A stretch of DNA of 15,048 nucleotides from assembly GCA_028293225.1 (NCBI GenBank), contig JAQGPE010000178.1:1-15048 (forward strand), given 5' to 3'. Each line of letters begins with the position of its first letter. The first letter of the stretch is position 1. Both the position numbers and the translations under genes were made by a program. The notes beneath the pieces are model-generated. The model was given only the letters and a program-made list of their open reading frames with translations. It was not told the DNA's origin and searched no databases. The DNA comes from Akkermansiaceae bacterium. Its GTDB lineage: Bacteria; Verrucomicrobiota; Verrucomicrobiia; Verrucomicrobiales; Akkermansiaceae. Shown one piece after another: positions 2-12,106 of the stretch.

Positions 2-3000
2 CTTCAACACCAGTTCGCCGGATCCGGGAATCCCAAGCGCCAGATCGAGCCCGCCGACCAGCAGCAGGGCATTACCCAGACCGTCGACCGTCACGCTGCC
101 GGTCGGGTCGACCTTCAGACCGCCTGAGCCTTCGACCAGCCAGACCGAGCCGTGGCCCATGATGTCGCCGGTCACGTTCATGCCGTAAACCGCGCCACCA
201 CCGGAAGTACCGGCATCGAAGATCAGCAGGTCCCCGCCGGCCGTGAAGTCGCCGATGGTCACGATCTGGTTGCCGTCGTTGAAGAGGATCGTGCGACCCT
301 GGGTGTCGCCGCTCAGCTCGCCGACCACGATCTTCGAGCCGGTCTTCTGCAGGATGTTGCCGGCCGCCTTGAGATTGAGCTTCGTGGCGTTGAGCACATC
401 GCCGAGCGAGATGGCTCCGGCGGAGTCGAGCGCCAGATTGTGGAGTTGCGCGGCGATCGATTTAAAATCGAGCGACCCCGCCTTGAGCGTGGCGTCAGCT
501 CCGAGCGTCACGTCGTCGTTATAGAGCTGGGCGCCGGTGGTGGTGATCGAGCCGCCGTCGATCTGGGTGGTGCCCGGGGCGTCGGTGGTCAGGCTGACCA
601 AAGCCGTGCCGGAGCCGACCGCGCCGCCGAAGCGGGTGTCGATCGCATTCACGACCACCGCGGAGGAGCCGTCGAGCCTGGCGCCGAAGTTCACGCCCGC
701 GCCGGTGAAGAGAGTCGCCGGACCGCTGAGAACCACGTCATCCCCGTAGGTCTGGTTGCCTGTTGTGTGAACTCCCGGGCCCTGAATCAGCGTGCTGCCT
801 GTCGCATCGGTCGTCAGGCTGGTCAGCGCCGTGGTGCCGCCAACCGTCCCGCCGAAGGTCGTGGTGGTCGCATTGACCGTGGTGTCCGAAGCCCCGTCGA
901 GCGTGCTGCCGAAGGTCACCGCCGCGCCATTGAAGACGCTGGTCGCGCTGCCGAGCGTCACGGCGTCGTGGTAGGTCTGGGAACCGGTGGTCGAAACCAG
1001 GCCGCCGACGGTCGTGGTGCCGGCCGCGTCGGTGGTCAGGCTGGTTAGTGCTGTTGAACCGCCGACCGCTCCGCTGAACAGAGTCGTGACCGCATTGATC
1101 GTCGTGGCGGAGGCGCCATCGAGCGTCGCCGCGAAGGTGATCGCGCTGCCGGTGAAGACGGAGACCGGTGCGCCGAGAGTGACCGTGTCGCCATAGACCT
1201 GCACGCCGCTGGTGGTGATGCCGCCGCCGTTGACGGCCGTGGTGCCGCCCGCATCCGTGGTCAGGCTGGCAAGGGCGACATTGCCGCCGGCCGCACCGGA
1301 AAAGGTGGTCGCACCCGCGGAGTTGACCGTCAGCCCAAAGCCGCCGTCCACCGCGCCGCCGAACCGGGCGCTGCCGCCGGTGATCGTCGCATTCGAAACC
1401 AGAACCACATCCTGGCTAAAGAGGATGTCCCCCGCCGCCGTGCTGCCGGTGGTGAGGTCCGACGCCAGGGTGATGGGGCCGATGCCGGAGTTCAGGGAAA
1501 TCGCATCACCGGTGGTGGTGATGCCGGTGACGCCGTCGACCGTGCCGACGGTGTAGCCGAGGCTGTTGGTGAAGCTCAGCGAGCCGTCCAGATTTGCCGC
1601 CAGTGTGCCGACATTGTTGCCGGCGTTCAGCAGGGTGAACGAACCTCCCGCCGTGCTGCCGAGCCGCAGGCCCGCTGCGCGGATCGAGCCGGTCAGATTG
1701 GTGGCCACGCCATGGTTGGTGAAGGCCACCGCCGCCAGATTCAGGCCGCCGCCATCCGCGCCGGAGATGAAGTCGGTGATATCGCCGCCCGCCGCGAAAT
1801 CGAAGACGTCGACCGCGCTGCCGCCGGAGCGCAACTGCGAGAACTGATTGAAGCCGACGCCCAGCAGCGAACCGGCGTTGGTGCCGGTGATCGACCAGGT
1901 ATCCGCGACCGCCGTGCCCATGATGGTGTTGGTCCCGCCCGCGCCGTCGACCGAGTCGATGTTCGAGAAGGCGATGCCCAGGCCATTGCCGGCGCGGCTG
2001 CCGGTGACGGTGAAGAGGTCGTCGCCGGAGGTCAGGGTGATCGAGTTCGTGCCAGTGGAGCCATCGACGATCTCGATGTTGGCAAGCGCGATGCCCGCAG
2101 TGGTTGCGGCTCCGGTACCGGTGACGGTCAGGCTGTCATTGCCCGCCGTCAGCACCACCGTGTCGCTGCCACCGAGCGCATCGACCTGGGTGAGGTTGGT
2201 GAAGTTCAGTGCCCCGAAAACCCCCGTGCCGCTGCCGGTGACCGTGAAGAGATCGTTGCCGCCCGTCAGCGTGAGCAGGGCCGTGCTGACGGTCTCGAAA
2301 TTCGACTCGGTGACCCCTGCGACCGTGTTGGTGGCGCCGTCGAAAGCGCCCGCGGTGCTGTTCACCAGCGTGTCGCTGCCGGCCATGCCGTCCACCTGGG
2401 TGAGGCTGATGAAGTTCAGCGCGCCAAAGGTGCCGGTGTTCGAACCAGTGACGGTGAACAGATCGTCTCCGATCGTCAGGTTCAGCCTGGCGGTGTCGAT
2501 GATCTCGAAGTTCGTCTGGGTCACACCCGCGACCGAATTGGTGGAGCCTTCGAAAGCCAGCGCGGTGCCGTTGACCAGCGTGTCGCTGCCACCCGCGCCA
2601 TCGACCCGATCGAGATTCGTGAAGGCCACGCCGCTGCCGGTTCCGGCCCGCGTGCCGGTGACGGTGAAGGAATCGTTTCCGCCAGTGAGGACCGTGGTAT
2701 TCACCCCCGCCAGTCCGTCGACGGAGCTGAGGCCCGTGTAATTGAGGCCCGCGAAAGTGCCGGTCCCCGCGCCGGTCAGGGCGAAGGAATCATCCCCGGC
2801 GGTCAGGTTCAGCAGAGCGGTGTTGACTGTCTCGAAGTTCGTCTCCGTCACCCCGCTGACCGAAAGCGTGGCGGCCTCGAAAGCGAGCGCCGTGCCGTTC
2901 ACCAGCGTGTCGCTTCCGGCCAGGCCATCGACCTGGGTGAGGTTGGTGAAGTTCAGACCGCCAAAGGTTCCGGCATTCGCCCCGGTCACGGTGAAGAGGT

Positions 3001-6000
3001 CGTCGCCAGTGGTCAGGTTGAGCAGCGCCGTGCTGACAGTCTCGAAGTTGGTCTGAGTGATGCCCGAGACCGAGTTGGCTGCGCCGTCGTAAGCCAGGGC
3101 CGTGCCGTTGACCAGAAGATCGGCGCCGCCAAGGCCGTCCACGCTGGTGACACCCGTGAAATTCGTCGCCAGGTAGGTGCCGCTGTTGGCACCAGTGACG
3201 GTGAAAGTATCAGCCCCGCCAGTCAGCGCCAGCAGTGCGGTATTGACCGTCTCGAAGCCCGCCGCGGTGACTCCCGCCGCGGAGTTCGTCCCCGCATTGT
3301 AAACCGTCCCACTGTTGTTGACGAAGAGGTCGCTACCGCCGAGGGCATCCACGCTGGTCAGACCCGTGTAGCTCAGGCCCGCGAAGGTCCCGGTGCCCGC
3401 TCCGGTCAGAGCGAAGGAATCGTCTCCCCCGGTCAGATTCAGCAGCGCGGTGTTCACCGTCTGGAAGTTCGTTTCCGTCACCCCGTTGACCGAGAGGGTC
3501 GAGGCTTCGAAGGCCAGGACCGTGCCGTTGACCAGGGTATTGCTCCCCGCCAGGCCGTCGACCTGGGTGAGGTTGGTGAAGTTCAGCGTCCCAAAGGTGC
3601 CGGCATTCAATCCGGTCACCGTGAAGAGATCGTCGCCCGCGGTGAGATTGAGCAGGGCGGTGCTGACGGTCTCGAAGTTGGTCCCGGTGATCCCCGCGAC
3701 CGAGGTCGTGGCGCCGTCGAAGGCCAGCGCGGTGCTGTTGACCAGCGTATCGGTTCCGCCCAAGCCATCGACATCGGTGACCCCGCTGTAGCTGGTGCCG
3801 AGGAAGGTTCCAGTGCCCGCCCCCGTGACGGTGAAGAGATCGTTGCCGCCGGTCAGGGAGATCAGGGCGCTCTGGACATTCTCGAAATTCGCCGCCGTGA
3901 TTCCCGCGACCGAGGTCGTTCCGCCGTTGAAGGCCAGTCCGCTGTTGTTGACCAGCGTGTCGGTTCCGGCAAGACCGTCCACGGTGGTGAGACCGGTGAA
4001 ATTCTGCGCGCCAAAGGTTCCCGCGCCAGCGCCGGTGACCGTGAAAAGATCATCGCCGCCGGTGAGATTGAGCAGTGCGGTGTTGATCGTTTCGAAGCCC
4101 GTCACCGAAACTCCGGCAACGCTGCTGGTGGCTCCGTCAAAAGCGCCGGCGGTGTTGTTGTTCGCGACGCTCCCTGCGCCTGCGCCGATCGCCGAATCCA
4201 GATTGGTGAAAGCAATTCCGCTGGCCGTACCGGCCCGGGTACCGGTGACCGAGAAGACGTCCCCGGGGCTGAATACATGCACGGAATTGGTCCCCCCGAG
4301 TCCATCGACATGAGTCACTCCATAATAGTTGACTCCCGCCATGCTGCTGGAAGTGCCACCATAAACCTCGTAGTCATCATCTCCCGCGGTCAGTGTCAGG
4401 AACGATGTGACGATCTTGTCAAAGCTGGTCTCGCTCACGCCGCCAGCCGACTGGGTGGCCGCCGAGAAGGCGCCGCCGGACTGATTGATAAAAATATCGT
4501 TCCCGGCAAGACCGTCGACGTGGGTCAGGCCGGTGTAGTTTATACCGAGGAAGGTGGAGGTCCCCGGTCCGTCGATGATGATCAGATCGTCGCTCGTAGT
4601 GAGATCGAGCAGCGCGGTGTTGACGGTTTCGAAATGACTGACTGCGACTCCGGAAACGCTGTTGGTCGCAGCGCTGAATGCACCCGCGGTCAGGTTCGAA
4701 AGCGCATCGTTCCCGCCCAGGCCGTCGACCGTACTCAGCCCGGTATAGGCCTGGCCGCTGAAGGTGCCGGCATTCGCACCGGTTACGGAGAAGGCGTCAT
4801 CGCCCGTCGAGAGATTCAGCAGGCTGGTTTGGACGGTGGTGAAATTCACGGCCGAAACCCCGCCAACCGCCACCGCTACGCCGTCGAAAGCCGTTCCGGT
4901 GGAGTTGATCAGGATGTCGCTGCCGCCGCCCCCGGCGACCTTATCCAGATCCGTGAACGCAATGCCCAGGCCGGAGCCGGTCCTCGTTCCGGTGACCGTA
5001 AAAGAGTCGTTGCCCGCGGTCAGCACCACTTCGTTGGTCCCGCCCAGGCTGTTGACCGTCGTCAGGCCGGTGAAGTTCTGGCCGGAGAAAGTGCCCGCAT
5101 TCGCGCCGGTCACGATGAAGACGTCATCCGTCCCGCTCAGATTGAGTTCCGCAGTCTGGATGGTCGCAAAGCCGATGACCTCCACCCCGGCAACCGTGTC
5201 GGTCGGGGCGTCGTAGGCCGCACCGCTGGTGTTGACCAGCGAGTCGAGGCCGCCGTTGCCATCGATTGAGTGGATGGAGGAAAACGAAATTCCGCTGCCT
5301 GAGCCGGCATTGGCGCCAGTGACGGTGAAAGTTTCATCGCCCCCGGTCAGCACCACCGCGTTCGTGCCGCCCAGTCCGTCGACGTTCGTCACGTTGCTGA
5401 CGGTCACGGAGCCGAAAGAGATCGCGTTGGCGGCGGTGACATTCACCGTGTCGTTGCCGCTGGTCAGGTTGACCGTGTTGGCTCCGCCCGCCAGATCGAT
5501 CGCGATGTTGTTCGCCGGAGTGGTCGTGAACGCGACCGTGTCGTCGCCGGCCCCGCCGGTGGCCGTGGCGCCCAGCGCCGAGAGCACCGATCCTCCGGCG
5601 CCGAAAGTGAGCACGCCTCCTTCGGACTGGCCGAAATTCAGCGAGACGGCCCCGAGGGTGGCGATGCTGTCATTGACCGTAATGTCGTTGCCGGCCGAAA
5701 GGGTGATGGCCCCGGCGACCACGCTGGAAATGCCCGCATCGACCTTGATGTCGTGCCCGGCGGTCAGATTGATGCCGCCGGTCAGGGTGTTGGTGATCGC
5801 GCCGCTGACGAGGATGTCGTGACCGGCATCCAGCGTCAGGCTGAAGAGGCTGGCATAGGCCAGCGGGTCGGCAACGGTGATGTCGGTGGTGGCGGCCAGC
5901 GTCAGATTGCTGGTGAGCAGCAGCCCGGCTACCGCGCCGGTGGTGATCACGCTGTTGGCGCCGGGGAAATCGAGCGTCGCGCTGTCGAGATCCGCAGCCG

Positions 6001-7288
6001 TGGCGATATCGTTGTTGGTTCCGTCGCCGGCGATGTCCGGGTTGCTGGCCTGGATCGTGATGTTGGCCGGGTCCAGCAACAGGCTGCCCTTCTCTCCCGA
6101 AGCCGAGGTGAGGTCGGCGTCGCCGCGGAAGTCGAGATACTCCTTGCCGGAAACTTCGGCGCTTCCTCCTGCTCCATGGCCCGCGCCCTTGGCGCTGATC
6201 GAGCCTTGGTAGGAGGTCGCACCGTCCGACCAGACGACCACCTGGCCGCCCTTGCCGTTTTCGGTGGCGTCGGCCTTGATGGTCGCGCCTTTCTCGACGC
6301 GGGTGGCCTTGGAGTTGGCGATGGAGGCGTCCTTGCCGTGCAGGCCGCCACCGATCTTCACCGTGCCGCCCGCCTTGGGGCCGCTGGCGTCAATGGTCGA
6401 GCTGGCTTTCACATCGACGGTGCGGCCGCTCAGGGCCACGTCGCCACCCTTGTCGCCCTTCACCGCCTTGATCGCCCCGGAATGAACCACGCTGCCTTCG
6501 GTGCCGGCATTCAGATAAACCCCGCCGCCGGGGCGGATCTGGATGTTGTTCACCCCTGTTCCGCCGGTATTCATGGCGTACTGGTAGGGGTTGCCGCCGT
6601 TGTGATGGAGATCGTCCTGGATCGCCTTGATCGTCCCGGAATTCACCACCTTATCGCCGCGGGAAGAGGACTTCACCTCGACATAGACATGCTCGTCGGA
6701 GGCCTTGCGCAGCACGATTTCCCCGCCTGCGGCGAGACCGGCGTTGCCGTTATGCGCCTCGATACTCCCGGCGTTGGTAACGTTCCTTCCCAATAGAAAG
6801 ACATCGCCTTCGCGGGCCAGAATAGCACCCTTGTTAACAATCGACGCTTCCGAAGCACCGGAGAAAACCAGATTGCCATTGGCGACAAAGGCGTCGTTGG
6901 ACGTATTCAGCGTGGAACCGATGAAACCGTGGGTGTCGATGATGCCGGTGTTCCCGACCAGGATGCCGTTCTCGTTGATCAGCGCGACCTTCCCGTTGGA
7001 AATCAGGGTGCCGAGGAGTTCGGAAGGCATCGTGCCGACCACCCGGTTCAGCGTTGCGGCATTCGCGCCGGGCTGCAGGATCTGGGTCAGCTGGTTGGCG
7101 CCGATCGAGAAACTATCCCAGTTGATGACCGTTTTCGTCGAGCCAGTGACCACGCTGAGGATATCCCCGTCCTGGGTGATCGTTGCGGAACCCACCGTCA
7201 CATTTCCACCGGCCGGATTGGCCGAAGAAGTCTGAAAAATGGCTGTTAGTACAAGGAATGCACCGGAAATCGGTAATACTTCTTTCAT
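2..7288 (-). CDS. Giant two-partner-secretion (filamentous haemagglutinin-type) exoprotein, C-terminus beyond the window
   Basis: An open frame of at least 2,429 codons starts at ATG 7288 and meets no stop before the left edge. Residues 1-23 look like a signal peptide (hydrophobic stretch, cleavage after SSA). Residues of about 24-300 match the TPS secretion domain of FHA-like proteins: GGNVTVGSATI, INWDSFSIG, NGKVALINENGILVG, then IRPGGGVYLNAG near 250 and LLLDPANITI near 400. Residues of about 615-1800 are Asp/Gly/Thr-rich tandem repeats (39- and 70-residue spacing). Residues of about 1990-2255 hold repeats of 74-75 residues with the motif SLTTDAxGTT. No cysteine was seen, as is usual for secreted beta-helix shafts. 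The family is exported through an outer-membrane TpsB (Omp85-type) pore, and no such partner is visible here. The likely role is a surface or released adhesin, inferred from the family. The start is supported by the signal peptide, although no Shine-Dalgarno precedes it. Confidence 0.9.
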   Translation of the reverse strand, partial: MKEVLPISGAFLVLTAIFQTSSANPAGGNVTVGSATITQDGDILSVVTGSTKTVINWDSFSIGANQLTQILQPGANAATLNRVVGTMPSELLGTLISNGKVALINENGILVGNTGIIDTHGFIGSTLNTSNDAFVANGNLVFSGASEASIVNKGAILAREGDVFLLGRNVTNAGSIEAHNGNAGLAAGGEIVLRKASDEHVYVEVKSSSRGDKVVNSGTIKAIQDDLHHNGGNPYQYAMNTGGTGVNNIQIRPGGGVYLNAGTEGSVVHSGAIKAVKGDKGGDVALSGRTVDVKASSTIDASGPKAGGTVKIGGGLHGKDASIANSKATRVEKGATIKADATENGKGGQVVVWSDGATSYQGSISAKGAGHGAGGSAEVSGKEYLDFRGDADLTSASGEKGSLLLDPANITIQASNPDIAGDGTNNDIATAADLDSATLDFPGANSVITTGAVAGLLLTSNLTLAATTDITVADPLAYASLFSLTLDAGHDILVSGAITNTLTGGINLTAGHDIKVDAGISSVVAGAITLSAGNDITVNDSIATLGAVSLNFGQSEGGVLTFGAGGSVLSALGATATGGAGDDTVAFTTTPANNIAIDLAGGANTVNLTSGNDTVNVTAANAISFGSVTVSNVTNVDGLGGTNAVVLTGGDETFTVTGANAGSGSGISFSSIHSIDGNGGLDSLVNTSGAAYDAPTDTVAGVEVIGFATIQTAELNLSGTDDVFIVTGANAGTFSGQNFTGLTTVNSLGGTNEVVLTAGNDSFTVTGTRTGSGLGIAFTDLDKVAGGGGSDILINSTGTAFDGVAVAVGGVSAVNFTTVQTSLLNLSTGDDAFSVTGANAGTFSGQAYTGLSTVDGLGGNDALSNLTAGAFSAATNSVSGVAVSHFETVNTALLDLTTSDDLIIIDGPGTSTFLGINYTGLTHVDGLAGNDIFINQSGGAFSAATQSAGGVSETSFDKIVTSFLTLTAGDDDYEVYGGTSSSMAGVNYYGVTHVDGLGGTNSVHVFSPGDVFSVTGTRAGTASGIAFTNLDSAIGAGAGSVANNNTAGAFDGATSSVAGVSVTGFETINTALLNLTGGDDLFTVTGAGAGTFGAQNFTGLTTVDGLAGTDTLVNNSGLAFNGGTTSVAGITAANFENVQSALISLTGGNDLFTVTGAGTGTFLGTSYSGVTDVDGLGGTDTLVNSTALAFDGATTSVAGITGTNFETVSTALLNLTAGDDLFTVTGLNAGTFGTLNFTNLTQVDGLAGSNTLVNGTVLAFEASTLSVNGVTETNFQTVNTALLNLTGGDDSFALTGAGTGTFAGLSYTGLTSVDALGGSDLFVNNSGTVYNAGTNSAAGVTAAGFETVNTALLALTGGADTFTVTGANSGTYLATNFTGVTSVDGLGGADLLVNGTALAYDGAANSVSGITQTNFETVSTALLNLTTGDDLFTVTGANAGTFGGLNFTNLTQVDGLAGSDTLVNGTALAFEAATLSVSGVTETNFETVNTALLNLTAGDDSFALTGAGTGTFAGLNYTGLSSVDGLAGVNTTVLTGGNDSFTVTGTRAGTGSGVAFTNLDRVDGAGGSDTLVNGTALAFEGSTNSVAGVTQTNFEIIDTARLNLTIGDDLFTVTGSNTGTFGALNFISLTQVDGMAGSDTLVNSTAGAFDGATNTVAGVTESNFETVSTALLTLTGGNDLFTVTGSGTGVFGALNFTNLTQVDALGGSDTVVLTAGNDSLTVTGTGAATTAGIALANIEIVDGSTGTNSITLTSGDDLFTVTGSRAGNGLGIAFSNIDSVDGAGGTNTIMGTAVADTWSITGTNAGSLLGVGFNQFSQLRSGGSAVDVFDFAAGGDITDFISGADGGGLNLAAVAFTNHGVATNLTGSIRAAGLRLGSTAGGSFTLLNAGNNVGTLAANLDGSLSFTNSLGYTVGTVDGVTGITTTGDAISLNSGIGPITLASDLTTGSTAAGDILFSQDVVLVSNATITGGSARFGGAVDGGFGLTVNSAGATTFSGAAGGNVALASLTTDAGGTTAVNGGGITTSGVQVYGDTVTLGAPVSVFTGSAITFAATLDGASATTINAVTTLFSGAVGGSTALTSLTTDAAGTTTVGGLVSTTGSQTYHDAVTLGSATSVFNGAAVTFGSTLDGASDTTVNATTTTFGGTVGGTTALTSLTTDATGSTLIQGPGVHTTGNQTYGDDVVLSGPATLFTGAGVNFGARLDGSSAVVVNAIDTRFGGAVGSGTALVSLTTDAPGTTQIDGGSITTTGAQLYNDDVTLGADATLKAGSLDFKSIAAQLHNLALDSAGAISLGDVLNATKLNLKAAGNILQKTGSKIVVGELSGDTQGRTILFNDGNQIVTIGDFTAGGDLLIFDAGTSGGGAVYGMNVTGDIMGHGSVWLVEGSGGLKVDPTGSVTVDGLGNALLLVGGLDLALGIPGSGELVLK
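525..1420 (-). repeat. Second repeat array of 74-75 residue units in the exoprotein
   Basis: Corresponding codons (the Gln of the TTGxQxYxDxVTLG motif) lie at 525, 750, 975 and 1197, with a weaker equivalent near 1419, giving intervals of 225, 225, 222 and about 222 bp. Each unit reads roughly TGxQTYxDxVTLG, then F(N/T)GxxVxFGxxLDG, then T(T/R)FGGxVGxxTALxSLTTDA. This pattern is common in FHA-like beta-strand-repeat proteins and indicates one long beta-helix module per unit. The unit nearest the left edge decays into non-repetitive sequence (about residues 2255-2429). Confidence 0.8.
1893..5459 (-). repeat. Two-length tandem repeat array (39- and 70-residue units) in the exoprotein shaft
   Basis: Each unit carries a landmark coding for LTxGDDxFTVTG. 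Counting that landmark on the plus strand gives positions 5442, 5325, 5115, 4998, 4788, 4578, 4368, 4251, 4041, 3831, 3621, 3411, 3201, 2991, 2781, 2664, 2454, 2244, 2127, 2010 and 1893. Every interval is exactly 117 bp (7 times) or 210 bp (13 times). The difference, 93 bp or 31 residues, is an extra cassette of the type LVNGTALAFEGSTNSVAG followed by xTNFETVxTALLNLT. Units separated by 117 bp mostly read GGTN before the landmark and TRAGxGxGIAFTNLD after it. Those separated by 210 bp mostly read GG(S/T)DTLVN before it and AGTFGxxNFTGLT at the end. Confidence 0.9.
2781..4041 (-). repeat. 630-bp higher-order duplication (two sets of three 210-bp units)
   Basis: Within the array, the units around 2781, 2991 and 3201 resemble those around 3411, 3621 and 3831, offset by 630 bp, more than they resemble their direct neighbours. 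The shared diagnostic variants are DDSFALTGAGTGTFAGL at landmarks 2781 and 3411 (other units have FTVTG), the preceding LSVxGVTETNF, and FGxLNFTNLTQVDGLAGS. This points to duplication of a three-unit block followed by point divergence. Identity was judged by eye; a self dot-plot would define the edges. Confidence 0.75.
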
Positions 7289-7480: not shown

Positions 7481-8116
7481 ATGTCGTCGGCCGTTTCAAA
7501 AATCCTCCCCATGGCCGGTTTCGGTCTTCTGGGCCTGCTTCCCGCCATGGCGGGAACCTGGCTGTGGACCCGCCACGGGGTGGAAGCAGAGGCGGCAAAA
7601 GCCCGCCGGGATGCCCAGGCTGGTGAAGCCGTGATGCGCCTGTCCGCCGGAAATTTGAGCGCCACCCTGCAGTTTCAGAACGCTGTGCGCGATGCCGAGC
7701 TGAAGACCGCCACCGCCTTTCTCAGCAGCCGCCAGCAAGCGGAAAGCGGGAAGAACGCCGGGGAAAATGAGCGCCTCGCCGCCGAGAAAAAGGCCGCCGA
7801 TGAGGTCGAGGAAACGCTGACAGTGATGGCCGCCAGGATGCCCGCCTACAGCGCCGAAGCCGGCTTCCTGAAGGACGAGGCGCGCACCGCCGCCAAGCTG
7901 GCCGACGCGACCTGGCCCGCATTGAAAACGACCGCCGAGGCACTGCAGACCCGCCTGTCCGCGCCGGTGCAGCAAAAGGATCTTCCGGCCCTGGAATCGG
8001 ATGTGAAGGGCTTCGAACAGAAGCTCGCCCCGGGCGTGCTACCGGAGCCCCAGGAGTGGGAACAGGAGGCGAAATCGCTACTGGAGGACTGGCACCGCAA
8101 GGTGACCGGAGCATGA
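7481..8116 (+). CDS. Membrane-anchored helical protein of unknown function (gene A)
   Basis: This is a 211-residue protein. Residues of about 9-29 form one membrane-spanning or uncleaved signal-anchor helix (GFGLLGLLPAMAGTWLW). The rest is charged and Ala/Glu/Lys-rich, predicted helical and partly coiled-coil (about 35-205), with no catalytic motif and no cysteine. ATG 7481 is preferred over an in-frame TTG at 7412 because it puts the hydrophobic helix next to the N-terminus, as in its neighbour. No Shine-Dalgarno is visible. Its TGA overlaps the ATG of the next gene by 4 bp (ATGA), so the two are probably translationally coupled and their products may act together. I do not recognise the family. 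An accessory or scaffold subunit of the downstream kinase is an inference from context only. Confidence 0.8.
   Translation: MSSAVSKILPMAGFGLLGLLPAMAGTWLWTRHGVEAEAAKARRDAQAGEAVMRLSAGNLSATLQFQNAVRDAELKTATAFLSSRQQAESGKNAGENERLAAEKKAADEVEETLTVMAARMPAYSAEAGFLKDEARTAAKLADATWPALKTTAEALQTRLSAPVQQKDLPALESDVKGFEQKLAPGVLPEPQEWEQEAKSLLEDWHRKVTGA
8099..8104 (+). promoter_or_regulatory. Shine-Dalgarno-like site of gene B
   Basis: AAGGTG lies 8 nt upstream of ATG 8113, inside the end of gene A. It is the only reasonable Shine-Dalgarno-like sequence in front of any of the starts in this window. It supports ATG 8113 over an earlier in-frame GTG at 8056, which would add 19 residues ahead of the membrane helix. 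Confidence 0.4.
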
Positions 8117-9279
8117 GCGGTGCGCTGAAGATCCTGCTCGGCGTCTCGGCCGTGGGCGTTCTCGGAGCCGCCTCGCTAGCTGGCGCTTTCATGCTCGGCT
8201 CGGGAACGGGCGGAGTGGCGGATCCTTCCACCGCAGAGGCAACGCTGCCACCGCTGAGCAGCATCGACGCGCCGCAGCTCAACCAGGCCTGGACCTCCCT
8301 GCGGAGTTCCGGCAGCGCCTTGGCCAATGAGAGCGCCGCTGTCGCCGCCCGCTGGAAGACCTTCACTGCGAACCTGCGGAAAATCTATCCCGAGGCTCCG
8401 GAAGCGACCGATTCCGTCTCGGCGAATGCCGCGCTCCAGCAGGCCAGTTCCTGGCTGGCCGAGCGCAGTAAGGCGGCCAACCAATCGCGCAGCGCCGGCA
8501 CCGACCAGGCCCGCGATGCGGTGCTGTCCGAAATCGCCGCGCTGCGCACCGACCTGGAAAGCCTGCGCCGCTACCGCGACTCGCCGCTTTCCGCGAAGCT
8601 GAAGTCGCTGCTCATCCTGGGCGGCAATCGCAGCGCTCCGAAGGGCATCGATCTGGTCTGGATCCCCGATCGCAGCAAGGGCTCTGCCGGCGGCTTCTGG
8701 GCGGCGAAGAGGGAAACCTCCCTGGCCCAATACAAGGATGTCGCCGGCCGCGAGCCCGCCAGCGCTTTCCGCAAGCCCACCGGCGGCAGCGGCGGTGGTG
8801 GCGCCAGCGATGCCGACATCGACCGCCAGATCCAGGAGGCCCGCACCAAGTTCCTGGCCAATGCGCCCGCCGCCAACCGCGAGTCGGCCGCCCTGGCCTT
8901 CGACGACCGCATGGCCCCGAAACTGCGCGCGCAGTACAAGGCCGCCGCCGAACAGCGCGCCCAGCAGGCCGCCTCCGGCTATGAGAAATTCCCCGCCGAC
9001 CTGGCGAACATGACCGAGAAGGACGACAGCCAGCCCTTCCTGAGCAAGCTCCAGCAGAGCGATCTACCTGGCAGCGCCTGGCAGTACCGCCTGCCGACCC
9101 GCGAGGAGTGGGCGCTGCTCCAGGGCAAGGTCGACGGCATCGGCACGCCGGACCTGAGCGAGTGGCTGGCCGACTCCAGCGCGGCGGTGGATCGCAACTG
9201 GAAGGCCGAGCAGGCCACCTCGCCGCCCGCTCCGGGCACGGTCGGCTTCCGCGTGGTCCTGGCCGGACAGTCGCCCTGA
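8113..9279 (+). CDS. Membrane-anchored protein with a degenerate, interrupted FGE/SUMF1-like domain (gene B)
   Basis: This is a 388-residue protein. Residues 5-28 form a membrane helix, about 45-165 is a helical, coiled-coil-like region, and about 179-388 resembles a formylglycine-generating-enzyme (SUMF1/DUF323) fold. The matches, in order, are IDLVWIP (179-185), a degenerate EVTxxQY-like ETSLAQY (201-207), YRLPTREEW (325-333), LSEWLAD (348-354) and the typical end GFRVVLAG (378-385). Between the second and third motifs lie a GGSGGGG linker and about 75 charged helical residues, where active family members have the VSWxDAxxFCxWL strand. The protein contains no cysteine, so the copper-binding cysteines of true FGE are absent. 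It is therefore probably a binding or structural domain, not an enzyme. It overlaps gene A by 4 bp, and gene C ends in a related domain. Assignment to the fold is fairly sure; the function is unknown. Confidence 0.8.
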   Translation: MSGALKILLGVSAVGVLGAASLAGAFMLGSGTGGVADPSTAEATLPPLSSIDAPQLNQAWTSLRSSGSALANESAAVAARWKTFTANLRKIYPEAPEATDSVSANAALQQASSWLAERSKAANQSRSAGTDQARDAVLSEIAALRTDLESLRRYRDSPLSAKLKSLLILGGNRSAPKGIDLVWIPDRSKGSAGGFWAAKRETSLAQYKDVAGREPASAFRKPTGGSGGGGASDADIDRQIQEARTKFLANAPAANRESAALAFDDRMAPKLRAQYKAAAEQRAQQAASGYEKFPADLANMTEKDDSQPFLSKLQQSDLPGSAWQYRLPTREEWALLQGKVDGIGTPDLSEWLADSSAAVDRNWKAEQATSPPAPGTVGFRVVLAGQSP

Positions 9280-9448: not shown

Positions 9449-12106
9449 ATGGAATTTTTACTGCACAACGAGGAGGGCATCCAGTTCCCACCGATCCGTC
9501 CGGCGTTCACGGAAGGAGAGTTGTTTTTCGACCGCTTCCGCGCGCTGACCCCGCGCGATGCGAAAGACAGCATCATCGGCGAGGGCGGCACCGGCCTGAT
9601 CCACCTGGTGCGGGACGAGCTGATGGACCGCGTGGTGGCGCTGAAGCTGCCGCACGAGAGCATCCTGCGCGACCCGAGCGCGCGCTTCGACGTGATCCGG
9701 GAAACGCGCCAGGCGATCGAGCTGACCCACCCGCACATCGTCCGCATCCACGACTTTCACGAAGGCCGCCAGGGCTGGGGCATCTCGATGCAGTATGTCC
9801 GCGGCAAGAACCTGGACGAATGGCGGCACGAAGGGCGCGCGGGCAACCGCCGCGGCATCGTCCCCTACGCGGTCGAGCGGATCGAGGGCTGGGTGGTGCA
9901 GCTTTGCGACGCGCTGATCTACGCGCATGAGGACGCGCGGATGGTGCACCGCGACATCAAGCCGAAGAACCTGATGCTGGAGCGCCGCGACGACGGCCAC
10001 GAGAAGCTGCTCCTGACCGACTTCGGCATCACCCAGAAGCTGCGCCTGCACACCATGATGCTGTCGCGCGTGCAACCGGGCACCAACGACAAGAACACCA
10101 TGGGCACCCTGCCCTACATGCCCTGGGAGCAGATCCAGGGCTCGCCGGCCTCCGCGCTGGACGACGTGTATGCGGTGGGCGCGACCATTTACGAACTGCT
10201 GACCGGCCGCCCGCCTTTCTATGAAGGCGGCTATGAGCAGATCCGCGTGCAGATCGAAAAGGTGGTGCCGCCGAGCATGGCCCAGCGGCTGCGCGACTTC
10301 GACCTGCCGGATCACGGCATCCCGCGGGCGTGGGAAGACACGGTGGCGGCGTGTTTGGCGAAGAAAGCGGAGGACCGGCCGCAAAGCGTGCGGGAAATCG
10401 TGGCGCGGCTCGGCCTGACTTCGAATGCCGTCGGCGCGCCGGTGGCAGCGGTCGCGGCGATCGGCGGGCCGGAGCTGGATGCGCTGCATCTGGATCTCCA
10501 ACAACGCACGGAGGAAATCGAGGCGCTGCGGATCGAGGTCACGCAGAGCCGGACGCAAGTCGATGCCCTGGCCGCCGAGGCGGCGCAGAGCCGCAGTCAG
10601 GCCGAAGCGCTGGCGGCGGAAGCCGCGCAGAGCCGGGCCCAGTTCGAAGCGGCCCAGGCGGCGCTGGAACAGAGCCAGGCCGAGATTGCCCATCTGCAAG
10701 GGACGCTGGAGCAATCCGGCGGCCGGATCGGCGAACTGGAGCAGGCCATCGCGGGTCATCAGGCCGCCCTCGGCGATGCCGGGGGCAGAACCGCTGCGCT
10801 CGATGCCGAACTGGGCGAGCTGAAGCAGTCGCTGGCTCTGGTGCAGGCGGAAAGCGTCCGCTGGAAGGAATCCTACGAATCCCTCGAACAGGGCCTGGAA
10901 GGCGAGCAGCAGGAGATGCTCTCACGGCTGCAGACTGACGTCGGCGAAAAGGATCGCCAGCTTTCCGAAGCCCGCGGCCACCACGAACAGCTTCAGAAAA
11001 ACCTGGCGGCGCTGGAACTCCAGCACGCCCAGGAACAGCAGCAGCGCGCCTCTTTGGAAGCCAGCCTGCTCGCCGCTCAACAGGCCGCGGGCGCCAGTGC
11101 CGCCGAGATCGAGCAGCGCTTCCAGGCGGAGATCGAGGGCTTGAAGCAGGCCGTTGCCACCGCTCAACAGCAGGCTCTCAGCGAGCAGCAGACCGCTGCG
11201 GCCCGCATCCAGGAGGCCGGGCAGGCTGCCCAGGTGCAGATCCAGCAGGCGGCACAGGTCAATCAACAGGCTCTCCAGCAGGCTGAGGCGGTCGCGCATC
11301 AGCAGGTCGAGGAAGCCCGCGCCGCGGCGCAGAGAGCGACCGCCGAGGCGGAGCAGATCGCCCGCAAGAACGCCGAGCAGGCGATGGCCGAGGCGCGCAC
11401 GAAATCCGAAGCTGCGCAGAAGGAGGCCGCCCGCTCGACCGAGGAGGCCCGCAAGGCGACGGCCGCCGCCGATGAAGCGAAGCGTGAACTCAATAGCATG
11501 AAGGACCGCCAGACGGCCCCGCTGATGCCCCTGCTCTACGTGCTGCTCGGCGCCTTGGTCGTCGGAGGCGGACTCGGCGTCGGACTCGGCAAGCTTGGCG
11601 GAAAATCCGCTGTCGAGGCAGCTCACGCGCTGAACCTTTCTCCCTACTCTTCGTCGATTCCCGAGCAGGCCGGCTCGGCCGGAGCCCCGGTCACGGCGGG
11701 TCTGTTCCGGAGTTATCTTTCCGATCAGAAAATCTCGTCCGCCGATGGCGCGAAGATCGTGCCGGGCCTCGACTCGCTGGATGATGCCGCACCCGTCACC
11801 GGGGTGACCTGGTGGGTGGCGGAAAACTTCTGCGCCTGGCTCGGCAGCCGTGAGCTCAGCGATGCAGATCGCACGAAAGGCCGCCATTTCCGCATCGCCA
11901 CCGCCGCGGAAATCACCAAGTCGAACCGCGGCGCCGACGCTCCGGCCGAGTGGACTTCCGATCCGGGCGACTCGAACGACAGTCCCGCCGGAGCCCGGAA
12001 AATCATCACCCGCGACGCCAAGGCCGATGGCAGTTGGCAAATGCCTTCTCTCGGAGCCGCACCGGGAGGAGCGAAACTGGCCTTCCGGGTGAGCCTGGCC
12101 GGATGA
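9449..12106 (+). CDS. Membrane Ser/Thr protein kinase with long coiled coil and C-terminal pseudo-FGE domain (gene C)
   Basis: This is an 885-residue protein. Residues of about 40-322 form a Hanks-type kinase domain. It has the glycine loop GEGGTG (44-49), VALK with catalytic Lys66, Glu85 of helix C, HRDIKPKN (167-174, Asp169 catalytic), DFG (191-193), YAVGATIYELLTG and DRP (309-311). All catalytic residues are present, so it should be active. The APE motif is altered to PWE (225-227). Residues of about 345-685 are a Gln/Ala/Glu coiled coil with repeats such as ALAAEAAQSR, about 692-716 is a membrane helix, and about 746-885 is FGE/SUMF1-like: PVTAGLFRSYL, GVTWWVAENFCAWLG (785-799), FRIATAAEI, AEW and FRVSLAG. 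The only cysteine of that domain is the structural-type FCxWL one, so it is probably non-catalytic. Topology predicts kinase and coil in the cytoplasm and pseudo-FGE outside, suggesting a receptor kinase. Kinase-SUMF1 fusions are known in T6SS PpkA-like proteins and in planctomycete/verrucomicrobial kinases; no T6SS gene is seen here. Confidence 0.93.
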   Translation: MEFLLHNEEGIQFPPIRPAFTEGELFFDRFRALTPRDAKDSIIGEGGTGLIHLVRDELMDRVVALKLPHESILRDPSARFDVIRETRQAIELTHPHIVRIHDFHEGRQGWGISMQYVRGKNLDEWRHEGRAGNRRGIVPYAVERIEGWVVQLCDALIYAHEDARMVHRDIKPKNLMLERRDDGHEKLLLTDFGITQKLRLHTMMLSRVQPGTNDKNTMGTLPYMPWEQIQGSPASALDDVYAVGATIYELLTGRPPFYEGGYEQIRVQIEKVVPPSMAQRLRDFDLPDHGIPRAWEDTVAACLAKKAEDRPQSVREIVARLGLTSNAVGAPVAAVAAIGGPELDALHLDLQQRTEEIEALRIEVTQSRTQVDALAAEAAQSRSQAEALAAEAAQSRAQFEAAQAALEQSQAEIAHLQGTLEQSGGRIGELEQAIAGHQAALGDAGGRTAALDAELGELKQSLALVQAESVRWKESYESLEQGLEGEQQEMLSRLQTDVGEKDRQLSEARGHHEQLQKNLAALELQHAQEQQQRASLEASLLAAQQAAGASAAEIEQRFQAEIEGLKQAVATAQQQALSEQQTAAARIQEAGQAAQVQIQQAAQVNQQALQQAEAVAHQQVEEARAAAQRATAEAEQIARKNAEQAMAEARTKSEAAQKEAARSTEEARKATAAADEAKRELNSMKDRQTAPLMPLLYVLLGALVVGGGLGVGLGKLGGKSAVEAAHALNLSPYSSSIPEQAGSAGAPVTAGLFRSYLSDQKISSADGAKIVPGLDSLDDAAPVTGVTWWVAENFCAWLGSRELSDADRTKGRHFRIATAAEITKSNRGADAPAEWTSDPGDSNDSPAGARKIITRDAKADGSWQMPSLGAAPGGAKLAFRVSLAG

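What the first reader, a model, noticed from the sequence alone, without database searches (positions are those of the whole stretch)
1893..5459. Repeat array with only two permitted spacings, 117 and 210 bp
Twenty consecutive landmark intervals are all exactly 117 or 210 bp (7 and 13 times), with no single indel across 3.5 kb despite clear sequence divergence. The longer unit is the shorter plus a 31-residue cassette. The two unit types have distinct flanking consensus (GGTN and TRAGxGxGIAF for short; GGSDTLVN and AGTFGxxNFT for long). This implies strict structural length constraint, such as fixed beta-helix rungs, and modular gain or loss of a cassette.
Basis: seen in the sequence. Interest (0 to 1): 0.7.

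Follow-up and report, generated by a model that had tools for sequence, protein, structure and literature searches.

The report
Two-module repeat stalk in secreted protein
A giant bacterial protein, probably exported to the cell surface, contains a long rod built from just two kinds of brick, 39 and 70 amino acids long, which is why the repeat spacing is so exact; it is a new twist on a known kind of protein.

Summary
Twenty-one repeat cores on the minus strand (window 5482-1817) are separated by exactly 13 intervals of 70 residues and 7 of 39; the last core is weak. They lie in one open frame (2429 aa, cut by the contig end) with a two-partner-secretion N-terminus. A TpsB transporter follows the gene in Luteolibacter and, by inference, here.

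AlphaFold gives a confident beta-solenoid (pLDDT 95.4). Its nearest solved folds are RTX-type beta-rolls, only weakly similar.

The interpretation needs two corrections. First, the 31-residue "cassette" is probably a shortened copy of the 39-residue unit itself: same five strands, about 8 residues lost. So 39 is one unit and 70 is two. Sequence support for this is uneven. Second, no sign of repeated gain or loss: in a tree of cores from five or six proteins the "preceded by cassette" state changes once. So there are two old modules, spread by block copying.

A rule appears in five proteins: cores after a cassette carry F/Y/M at column 23 (22 of 22), others do not (0 of 31). The exact lengths are not universal.

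The parts
2..7288 (-). Open frame of a TpsA-type exoprotein, 2429 aa, no stop before the contig/window end
   Evidence: matches Luteolibacter sp. SL250 protein P0004 in pieces between residues 16 and 2461, in order (pieces overlap in the repeats); P0004 2501-2680 matches another contig (C20) of the same genome
6650..7222 (-). TPS secretion domain (PF05860)
   Evidence: 65.5 bits, cut-off 33.5; TIGR01901 residues 55-129, E 1e-13; EtpA 8cpk_A E 4e-45 over residues 22-387
1817..5482 (-). Repeat array, residues 603-1824: 21 cores of 39 aa and 13 contracted units (cassettes) of 31 aa
5366..5482 (-). First core (39 aa), class not assigned
5249..5365 (-). S module (39 aa core not preceded by a cassette)
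5039..5248 (-). L module (31 aa contracted unit 5156-5248, then core)
4922..5038 (-). S module
4712..4921 (-). L module (contracted unit 4829-4921)
4502..4711 (-). L module (contracted unit 4619-4711)
4292..4501 (-). L module (contracted unit 4409-4501)
4175..4291 (-). S module
3965..4174 (-). L module (contracted unit 4082-4174)
3755..3964 (-). L module (contracted unit 3872-3964)
3545..3754 (-). L module (contracted unit 3662-3754)
3335..3544 (-). L module (contracted unit 3452-3544)
3125..3334 (-). L module (contracted unit 3242-3334)
2915..3124 (-). L module (contracted unit 3032-3124)
2705..2914 (-). L module (contracted unit 2822-2914)
2588..2704 (-). S module
2378..2587 (-). L module (contracted unit 2495-2587)
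2168..2377 (-). L module (contracted unit 2285-2377)
2051..2167 (-). S module
1934..2050 (-). S module
1817..1933 (-). S module, degenerate last unit (6.9 bits)
2051..3031 (-). Segment folded by AlphaFold2 (residues 1420-1746; six cores, three cassettes): beta-solenoid, pLDDT 95.4, pTM 0.88

Best explanation
The array is a beta-solenoid rod inside a two-partner-secretion (TpsA) exoprotein of a Verrucomicrobiota bacterium. Its structural unit is one repeat with five short strands. The unit exists as a full form (39 aa) and a contracted form (31 aa, the 'cassette'). Two modules are inherited whole: S (one full unit) and L (contracted unit plus a full unit with a bulky residue at column 23 that probably fills space left by the contracted neighbour). 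The array grew by copying blocks of modules, so spacing can only be 39 or 70, and each module keeps its length because an indel would break the strand register. The protein is most likely pushed through a TpsB pore beside its gene and stands on the cell surface as an adhesin-like fibre whose rod sets the length. Shown by computation: array, intervals, module classes, one change of class on the tree, TPS domain. Predicted: fold. Inferred: secretion, packing role of column 23, surface and adhesive role.
For: Exact intervals. TPS domain. Confident solenoid: cores have strands near positions 3-5, 12-17, 20-23, 26-29, 33-35; all three cassettes of the model have strands at 3-6, 12-13, 18-19, 22-25, 29-31. 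Cassette-core homology: P0004 cassettes 15.2 and 16.4 bits on a window-core-only model, 0 of 400 shuffles each; 12 of 24 cassettes that I picked from seven proteins at p<0.05 (10 of 24 with the wider model). In Microbulbifer proteins the double interval often resolves into two units of 36-39 that the core model recognises; 58 second halves from five proteins match window cores (HHalign E 2.9e-5, score above all 100 column shuffles). One change of class on the tree, 100/99 support, 53 or 78 cores. Column-23 rule 22/22 against 0/31. Block copying: residues 1109-1308 and 1319-1518 are 76.7% identical in DNA at offset 630 bp. TpsB next to the orthologue in G299 and on contig C20 here.
Against: The cassette-core link is weak from window sequences alone: HHalign score is reached by 7 of 100 column shuffles and by at least 8 of 60 in an earlier try; against Microbulbifer second halves by 2 of 100. 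A register scan has its best score at start 0, total gap 4, as the fold suggests, but puts the gap after cassette column 5, earlier than the fold (13.8 against 5.9-9.5), and 105 of 2000 shuffles reach it. Half of the 24 cassettes are not significant singly. The second fold, meant to test the link in Microbulbifer, failed (pLDDT 39.1). The class tree rests on 38 columns; with 22 kept it still needs one change, but support falls to 54/66 and only 55% of 200 bootstrap trees agree. The column-23 rule does not hold in P0003, P0004 (as scored) or the Microbulbifer-type proteins, and copies within an array are not independent. No experiment on secretion or adhesion; the C-terminus is on another contig.
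Confidence: 0.7

Rival explanations
1. One reading: a 39-residue rung repeat into which a separate 31-residue cassette has been inserted or from which it has been deleted at various places.
For: The long unit is formally the short unit plus 31 residues; direct cassette-core similarity in the window is marginal.
Against: The cassette shows the same five-strand order; the Luteolibacter cassettes are recognised by the core model; cores with and without a preceding cassette fall in two groups with one change on the tree, whereas labels dealt at random need 17-25 changes.
Confidence: 0.15
2. No special length constraint: the spacing is exact only because units were copied recently and indels have had no time to occur.
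For: There is block duplication (offset 630 bp, 76.7% identity over 600 bp); in other proteins with the same units the spacing does vary (71-76 in most of P0003, many values in Microbulbifer).
Against: The first eight cores of the array share only 18-72% of residues pairwise and still sit at exact intervals; the same 39 and 70 recur in P0007 and P0018, which show no TPS domain in Pfam or NCBIfam; third codon positions differ more than first and second (0.55 against 0.39 and 0.34), so the units have diverged under selection for some time.
Confidence: 0.2
3. The array is a calcium-binding RTX-like beta-roll and folds outside the cell when it meets calcium.
Confidence: 0.25

Closest known systems
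Luteolibacter sp. SL250 filamentous hemagglutinin N-terminal domain-containing protein (P0004; identical to the G299 open frame)
   Same: Same order of parts: TPS domain, array, C-terminal repeats, unknown C-terminal domain; TpsB is the next gene
   Different: Its array is mostly long units of 76 residues (44+32) with few short ones
TpsA exoproteins of two-partner secretion (EtpA; heme/hemopexin-binding protein; FHA from the review)
   Same: N-terminal TPS domain, long imperfect repeats, predicted beta-solenoid (PMC5422565 passages)
   Different: The review passages describe coils of three short strands per turn; here the unit is 39 or 31 residues with five strands, and the nearest solved folds are RTX rolls
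RTX beta-rolls (CyaA RTX domain, serralysin, RsaA)
   Same: Nearest solved folds; acidic, glycine-rich repeat
   Different: Nonapeptide motif nearly absent, no PF00353 hit in the window protein, TPS-type N-terminus
Proteins P0006, P0007, P0015, P0018 (other architectures; P0006 and P0007 begin with a PLESRIAPA motif; P0006 has PF14339 and PF00353)
   Same: 39 and 70 spacing (with 76 in P0006 and 41 in P0015), same two core classes, same column-23 rule
   Different: No TPS domain in Pfam or NCBIfam scans; 7 to 15 core-model hits each

Membership tests
Two-partner-secretion exoprotein (TpsA) | N-terminal TPS domain | tested here: met
   PF05860 65.5 bits, cut-off 33.5; TIGR01901 51 bits, cut-off 29.1. 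The whole-protein Pfam scan did not list PF05860
Two-partner-secretion exoprotein (TpsA) | TpsB (ShlB/FhaC) transporter gene beside it | tested here: inconclusive
   Met in G299, next gene, PF03865 73.6 bits. In this genome the window ends inside tpsA; contig C20 begins with 198 aa matching the P0004 C-terminus and continues into a TpsB 56% identical to that of G299; the two contigs are linked by inference only
Two-partner-secretion exoprotein (TpsA) | NPNL / NPNGI motifs of the FHA subfamily (NPNL seen; NPNGI recalled) | tested here: inconclusive
   NENGI at residue 105; no NPN in the first 200 residues
Two-partner-secretion exoprotein (TpsA) | Secreted and surface-exposed | not testable with these tools
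   needs an experiment
RTX protein | Tandem GGxGxDxUx nonapeptides (PF00353) | tested here: not met
   One GGxGxDxU in 1222 residues; PF00353 not among families at E<=1 (that scan also missed PF05860)
RTX protein | Parallel beta-roll fold | tested here: inconclusive
RTX protein | Calcium binding | not testable with these tools
   needs an experiment

The most novel reading that the evidence does not exclude
Solenoid arrays of this superfamily are written in a two-word code: a full unit and a fixed 'contracted unit + bulky-filler unit' pair that arose once, spread across several protein architectures and never exchanges parts. Module order would then set a pattern of pitch, twist or kinks along a surface fibre, not just its length.
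Probability: 0.3. Interest if true: 0.6.

Novelty: new variant of a known kind. Interest (0 to 1): 0.42.

Why it matters
It turns an odd numeric regularity into a simple, testable rule of how a giant surface fibre is built and grows: two inherited modules, one contracted turn paired with one compensating residue. The same rule in proteins of other architectures suggests a reusable building kit. It could help annotate 'beta strand repeat-containing' proteins, whose repeats I found no accepted family model for, and it suggests a natural design for solenoids with mixed turn lengths.

Tried and rejected
Direct profile comparison of window cassettes with window cores: not significant. Register scan: start and gap length agree with the fold, gap position does not, and 105 of 2000 shuffles reach the score. 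Fold of a Microbulbifer segment with 36-39 residue halves: failed, pLDDT 39.1 with five rows, so not used and not searched. PHROGs on the array: only phrog_27038, E 0.08. Pfam on the whole frame: CheD E 0.004 and RENR_N E 0.077, both under their cut-offs and taken as compositional. NCBIfam hits of P0005 and P0016 to flavodoxin and RecF models, and of P0015 to four unrelated models, all under cut-off, rejected likewise. Genome-contig scan: 11 loci (L007-L017) from several phyla whose matches cover various parts of the query; their arrays were not analysed. The G010 and G017 hits (35 and 34% identity) were fetched and their frames listed, not analysed further.

Papers, seven searches: two-partner secretion with Verrucomicrobi (6 papers; none by title or abstract on this); giant proteins + Verrucomicrobi + repeat + adhesin (0); Luteolibacter + filamentous hemagglutinin (0); four on solenoid, RTX and TpsA repeats (26, 7, 16 and 3 papers, of which 20, 7, 10 and 3 were listed; listings and starts of abstracts only). 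Of PMC5422565 I saw passages. So I found no print description of these modules, within those searches only. The number of coils per 39-residue unit could not be settled, as no coordinates are given out.

In the column-23 count I grouped five proteins chosen for their 39/70 spacing (76 counted as long in P0006, 41 as short in P0015). P0002 has V/L/I/F in 14 of 14 after long and T/S/G in 11 of 11 after short intervals. P0003 and P0004 (T, I, A, H after long) and the Microbulbifer-type proteins do not follow it, nor do P0031, P0032 and P0033 of the last search; P0034 had no usable interval. Core rows without a clear preceding interval were dropped from the trees.
Full report
What is there. The window is contig C252, 15048 bases, of a 4.5-Mb draft genome of 820 contigs, 62% complete. 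A minus-strand frame of 2429 codons runs from 7288 to the contig end without a stop. Its N-terminus is a TPS secretion domain (TIGR01901 E 1e-13; PF05860 65.5 bits; EtpA, an 'Adhesin' 2odl_A and heme/hemopexin-binding protein among solved structures). Residues 603-1824 (window 5482-1817) are the array.

The observation. A gapless 39-column profile finds 20 cores of 49-91 bits and one weak last core of 6.9 bits; the highest score in 200 shuffles of the protein is 5.9. Intervals are 13 of 70 and 7 of 39 residues, no others. The first eight cores share 18-72% of residues pairwise and the spacing is still exact. TRF sees only parts of it.

The unit. I folded residues 1420-1746 (six cores, three cassettes) with an 11-row alignment: pLDDT 95.4, pTM 0.88. 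Cores have strands near positions 3-5, 12-17, 20-23, 26-29 and 33-35, with shifts of a residue or two. Each of the three cassettes has strands at 3-6, 12-13, 18-19, 22-25 and 29-31. So the cassette has the same five strands in the same order; strand 2 and its surroundings are about 4 residues shorter and the end turn 4 shorter: 39-8=31. Sequence agrees in part. A model built only from window cores gives two Luteolibacter cassettes 15.2 and 16.4 bits (0 of 400 shuffles each). Of 24 cassettes that I picked from seven proteins, 12 reach p<0.05 with that model and 10 with a wider one. The others do not. Profile comparison within the window is not significant (7 of 100 shuffles as good; at least 8 of 60). 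A register scan prefers start 0 and a gap of 4, as the fold does, but places the gap at cassette column 5, earlier than the fold, and 105 of 2000 shuffles do as well. In Microbulbifer proteins the double interval often resolves into two hits of 36-39 residues, both seen by the core model; 58 second halves match window cores (E 2.9e-5, above all 100 shuffles) and, less well, window cassettes (2 of 100 shuffles as good). I take the cassette to be a contracted unit; I put this at about 0.75.

Two modules, not a movable insert. Cores preceded by a cassette (13) and cores not so preceded (6) differ (identity 0.61 and 0.53 within, 0.41 between; 0 of 5000 permutations). In a tree of 53 cores from P0001 (the window protein), P0006, P0007, P0015 and P0018 the class changes once (support 100/99; shuffled mean 17.2 changes; 0 of 500 shuffles as low; column 23 left out). 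With P0002 added (78 cores) it is again one change, 100/99, though the bootstrap had not settled; with only 22 columns kept it is one change with support 54/66, in 55% of 200 bootstrap trees. Free gain or loss of a cassette would be expected to need many changes. So L (cassette plus following core) and S (core) look like separate lineages older than the split of these proteins. A caution: a shared structural demand on cores that follow a cassette could also draw them together on so short a tree.

The column-23 rule. In those five proteins column 23 of the core is F, Y or M in 22 of 22 cores after a long interval and in 0 of 31 after a short one. Window cores that are followed but not preceded by a cassette (642, 751, 1000, 1529) carry G, G, A, G; those preceded but not followed (712, 961, 1490, 1669) carry F, M, F, F. 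So the cassette before, not after, matters. P0002 shows V/L/I/F in 14 of 14 against T/S/G in 11 of 11. P0003 and P0004 do not follow at the scored column; by eye they have SHTGG, a histidine with one extra residue, where the window has TFGG. Microbulbifer-type proteins, whose second halves are not contracted, show no such rule. I infer that the bulky side chain fills room left by the contracted turn. Copies within an array are not independent, so these counts overstate the number of events.

Growth. The best long self-match is 600 bp at offset 630 bp (three L modules), 76.7% identical, residues 1109-1308 against 1319-1518; next come offsets 840 bp (70.5%) and 537 bp (68.2%). 537 bp is L+L+S. 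So blocks of whole modules seem to be copied. Third codon positions differ most between cores (0.55 against 0.39 and 0.34), as expected under selection on the protein.

Relatives. Three protein searches (each scored only the 7986-8000 candidates sharing most words) gave 34 proteins including the window's. In the 30 of the first two searches there are 603 intervals: 233 of 36-41, 251 of 70-84 and 119 others; the commonest are 39 (108), 75 (54), 76 (47), 36 (40), 38 (39), 72 (37) and 70 (27, 13 of them in the window; the rest in P0002, P0006, P0007, P0011, P0015, P0018, P0022). Outside the window 115 of 583 are exactly 39 or 70. So the unit or double unit is general, the exact 39/70 pair is not. 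P0007 has 8 of its 14 intervals at 39 and 2 at 70, in a protein with no TPS domain in Pfam or NCBIfam; P0004 of Luteolibacter sp. SL250 has mostly 76 (44+32). Among genomes, the array alignment matched 2 of 18 of the genus sample including the window's own and 2 of 387 of the phylum sample including its own (at most 5 candidates scored per genome in the rows shown); the plain sequence matched 3 of 57 including its own. So it is rare in these samples.

Genes around it. The open frame in G299 is identical to P0004, so the window's genome is placed in the same family, in the tool's grouping, as a Luteolibacter (Verrucomicrobiota). In G299 the gene is followed by a TpsB (PF03865 73.6 bits, POTRA_2) and a VgrG-like gene (PF05954, Gp5_trimer_C). 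In the window's genome, P0004 matches C252 in pieces from residue 16 to 2461, in order, and 2501-2680 match C20 bases 2-592. C20 goes on into a TpsB 56% identical to that of G299 and, after another frame, a VgrG-like gene. So C20 most likely carries the end of this gene. The genome has two TPS-domain matches (this one and C134) and three TpsB matches (C134, C416, C20).

Most likely mechanism: TpsB-driven export, folding of the rod outside the cell, rod as spacer or stalk of an adhesin-like fibre, length changed by copying module blocks. Only the anatomy is shown; export, surface site and adhesion are inferred from family membership.

Verdict. The finding is real and its structural reading is on the right track, but the cassette is better seen as a contracted unit in a fixed two-unit module than as a piece that comes and goes. 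New variant of a known kind; moderate interest.

Noticed in passing
window 419-1303 (-), residues 1996-2290: A second repeat follows the array: four copies of about 75 residues (landmark SL[TA]TDA at residues 2008, 2083, 2157, 2232); similar stretches are seen in P0003 and P0004.
   Followed up: partly
L051 2-595 (contig C20) and P0004 2501-2680: Conserved C-terminal domain of these exoproteins ending in ...RYPLYLKQ..., with no Pfam match at E<=0.01.
   Followed up: partly
L044 2145-4244 and L051 4268-4999: A VgrG-like gene (PF05954) lies behind tpsA-tpsB in both genomes (in C20 with another frame between): an odd shared neighbour, perhaps part of a contractile injection system.
   Followed up: partly
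window 9449-12106 (+) and 8056-9279 (+): A Ser/Thr protein kinase with a repeat-rich region (42-bp tandem repeat at 10542-10651) and an FGE-sulfatase-like match just under cut-off; the gene before it has no Pfam match but by eye ends in a similar sequence.
   Followed up: no
P0002 C-terminal end: The last ~100 residues turn Arg-rich and unlike the array, as if the metagenome frame shifts there (by eye).
   Followed up: no
P0015: A relative with eight intervals of 41 residues in a row between very similar units, then 39 and 70: an apparently recently expanded run of S-type units.
   Followed up: no
L049 1043-2935 (contig C134): A MotA/TolQ/ExbB protein with LamG and DUF2341 domains follows a TpsB; the genome's other TPS-domain gene lies further along the same contig.
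   Followed up: no
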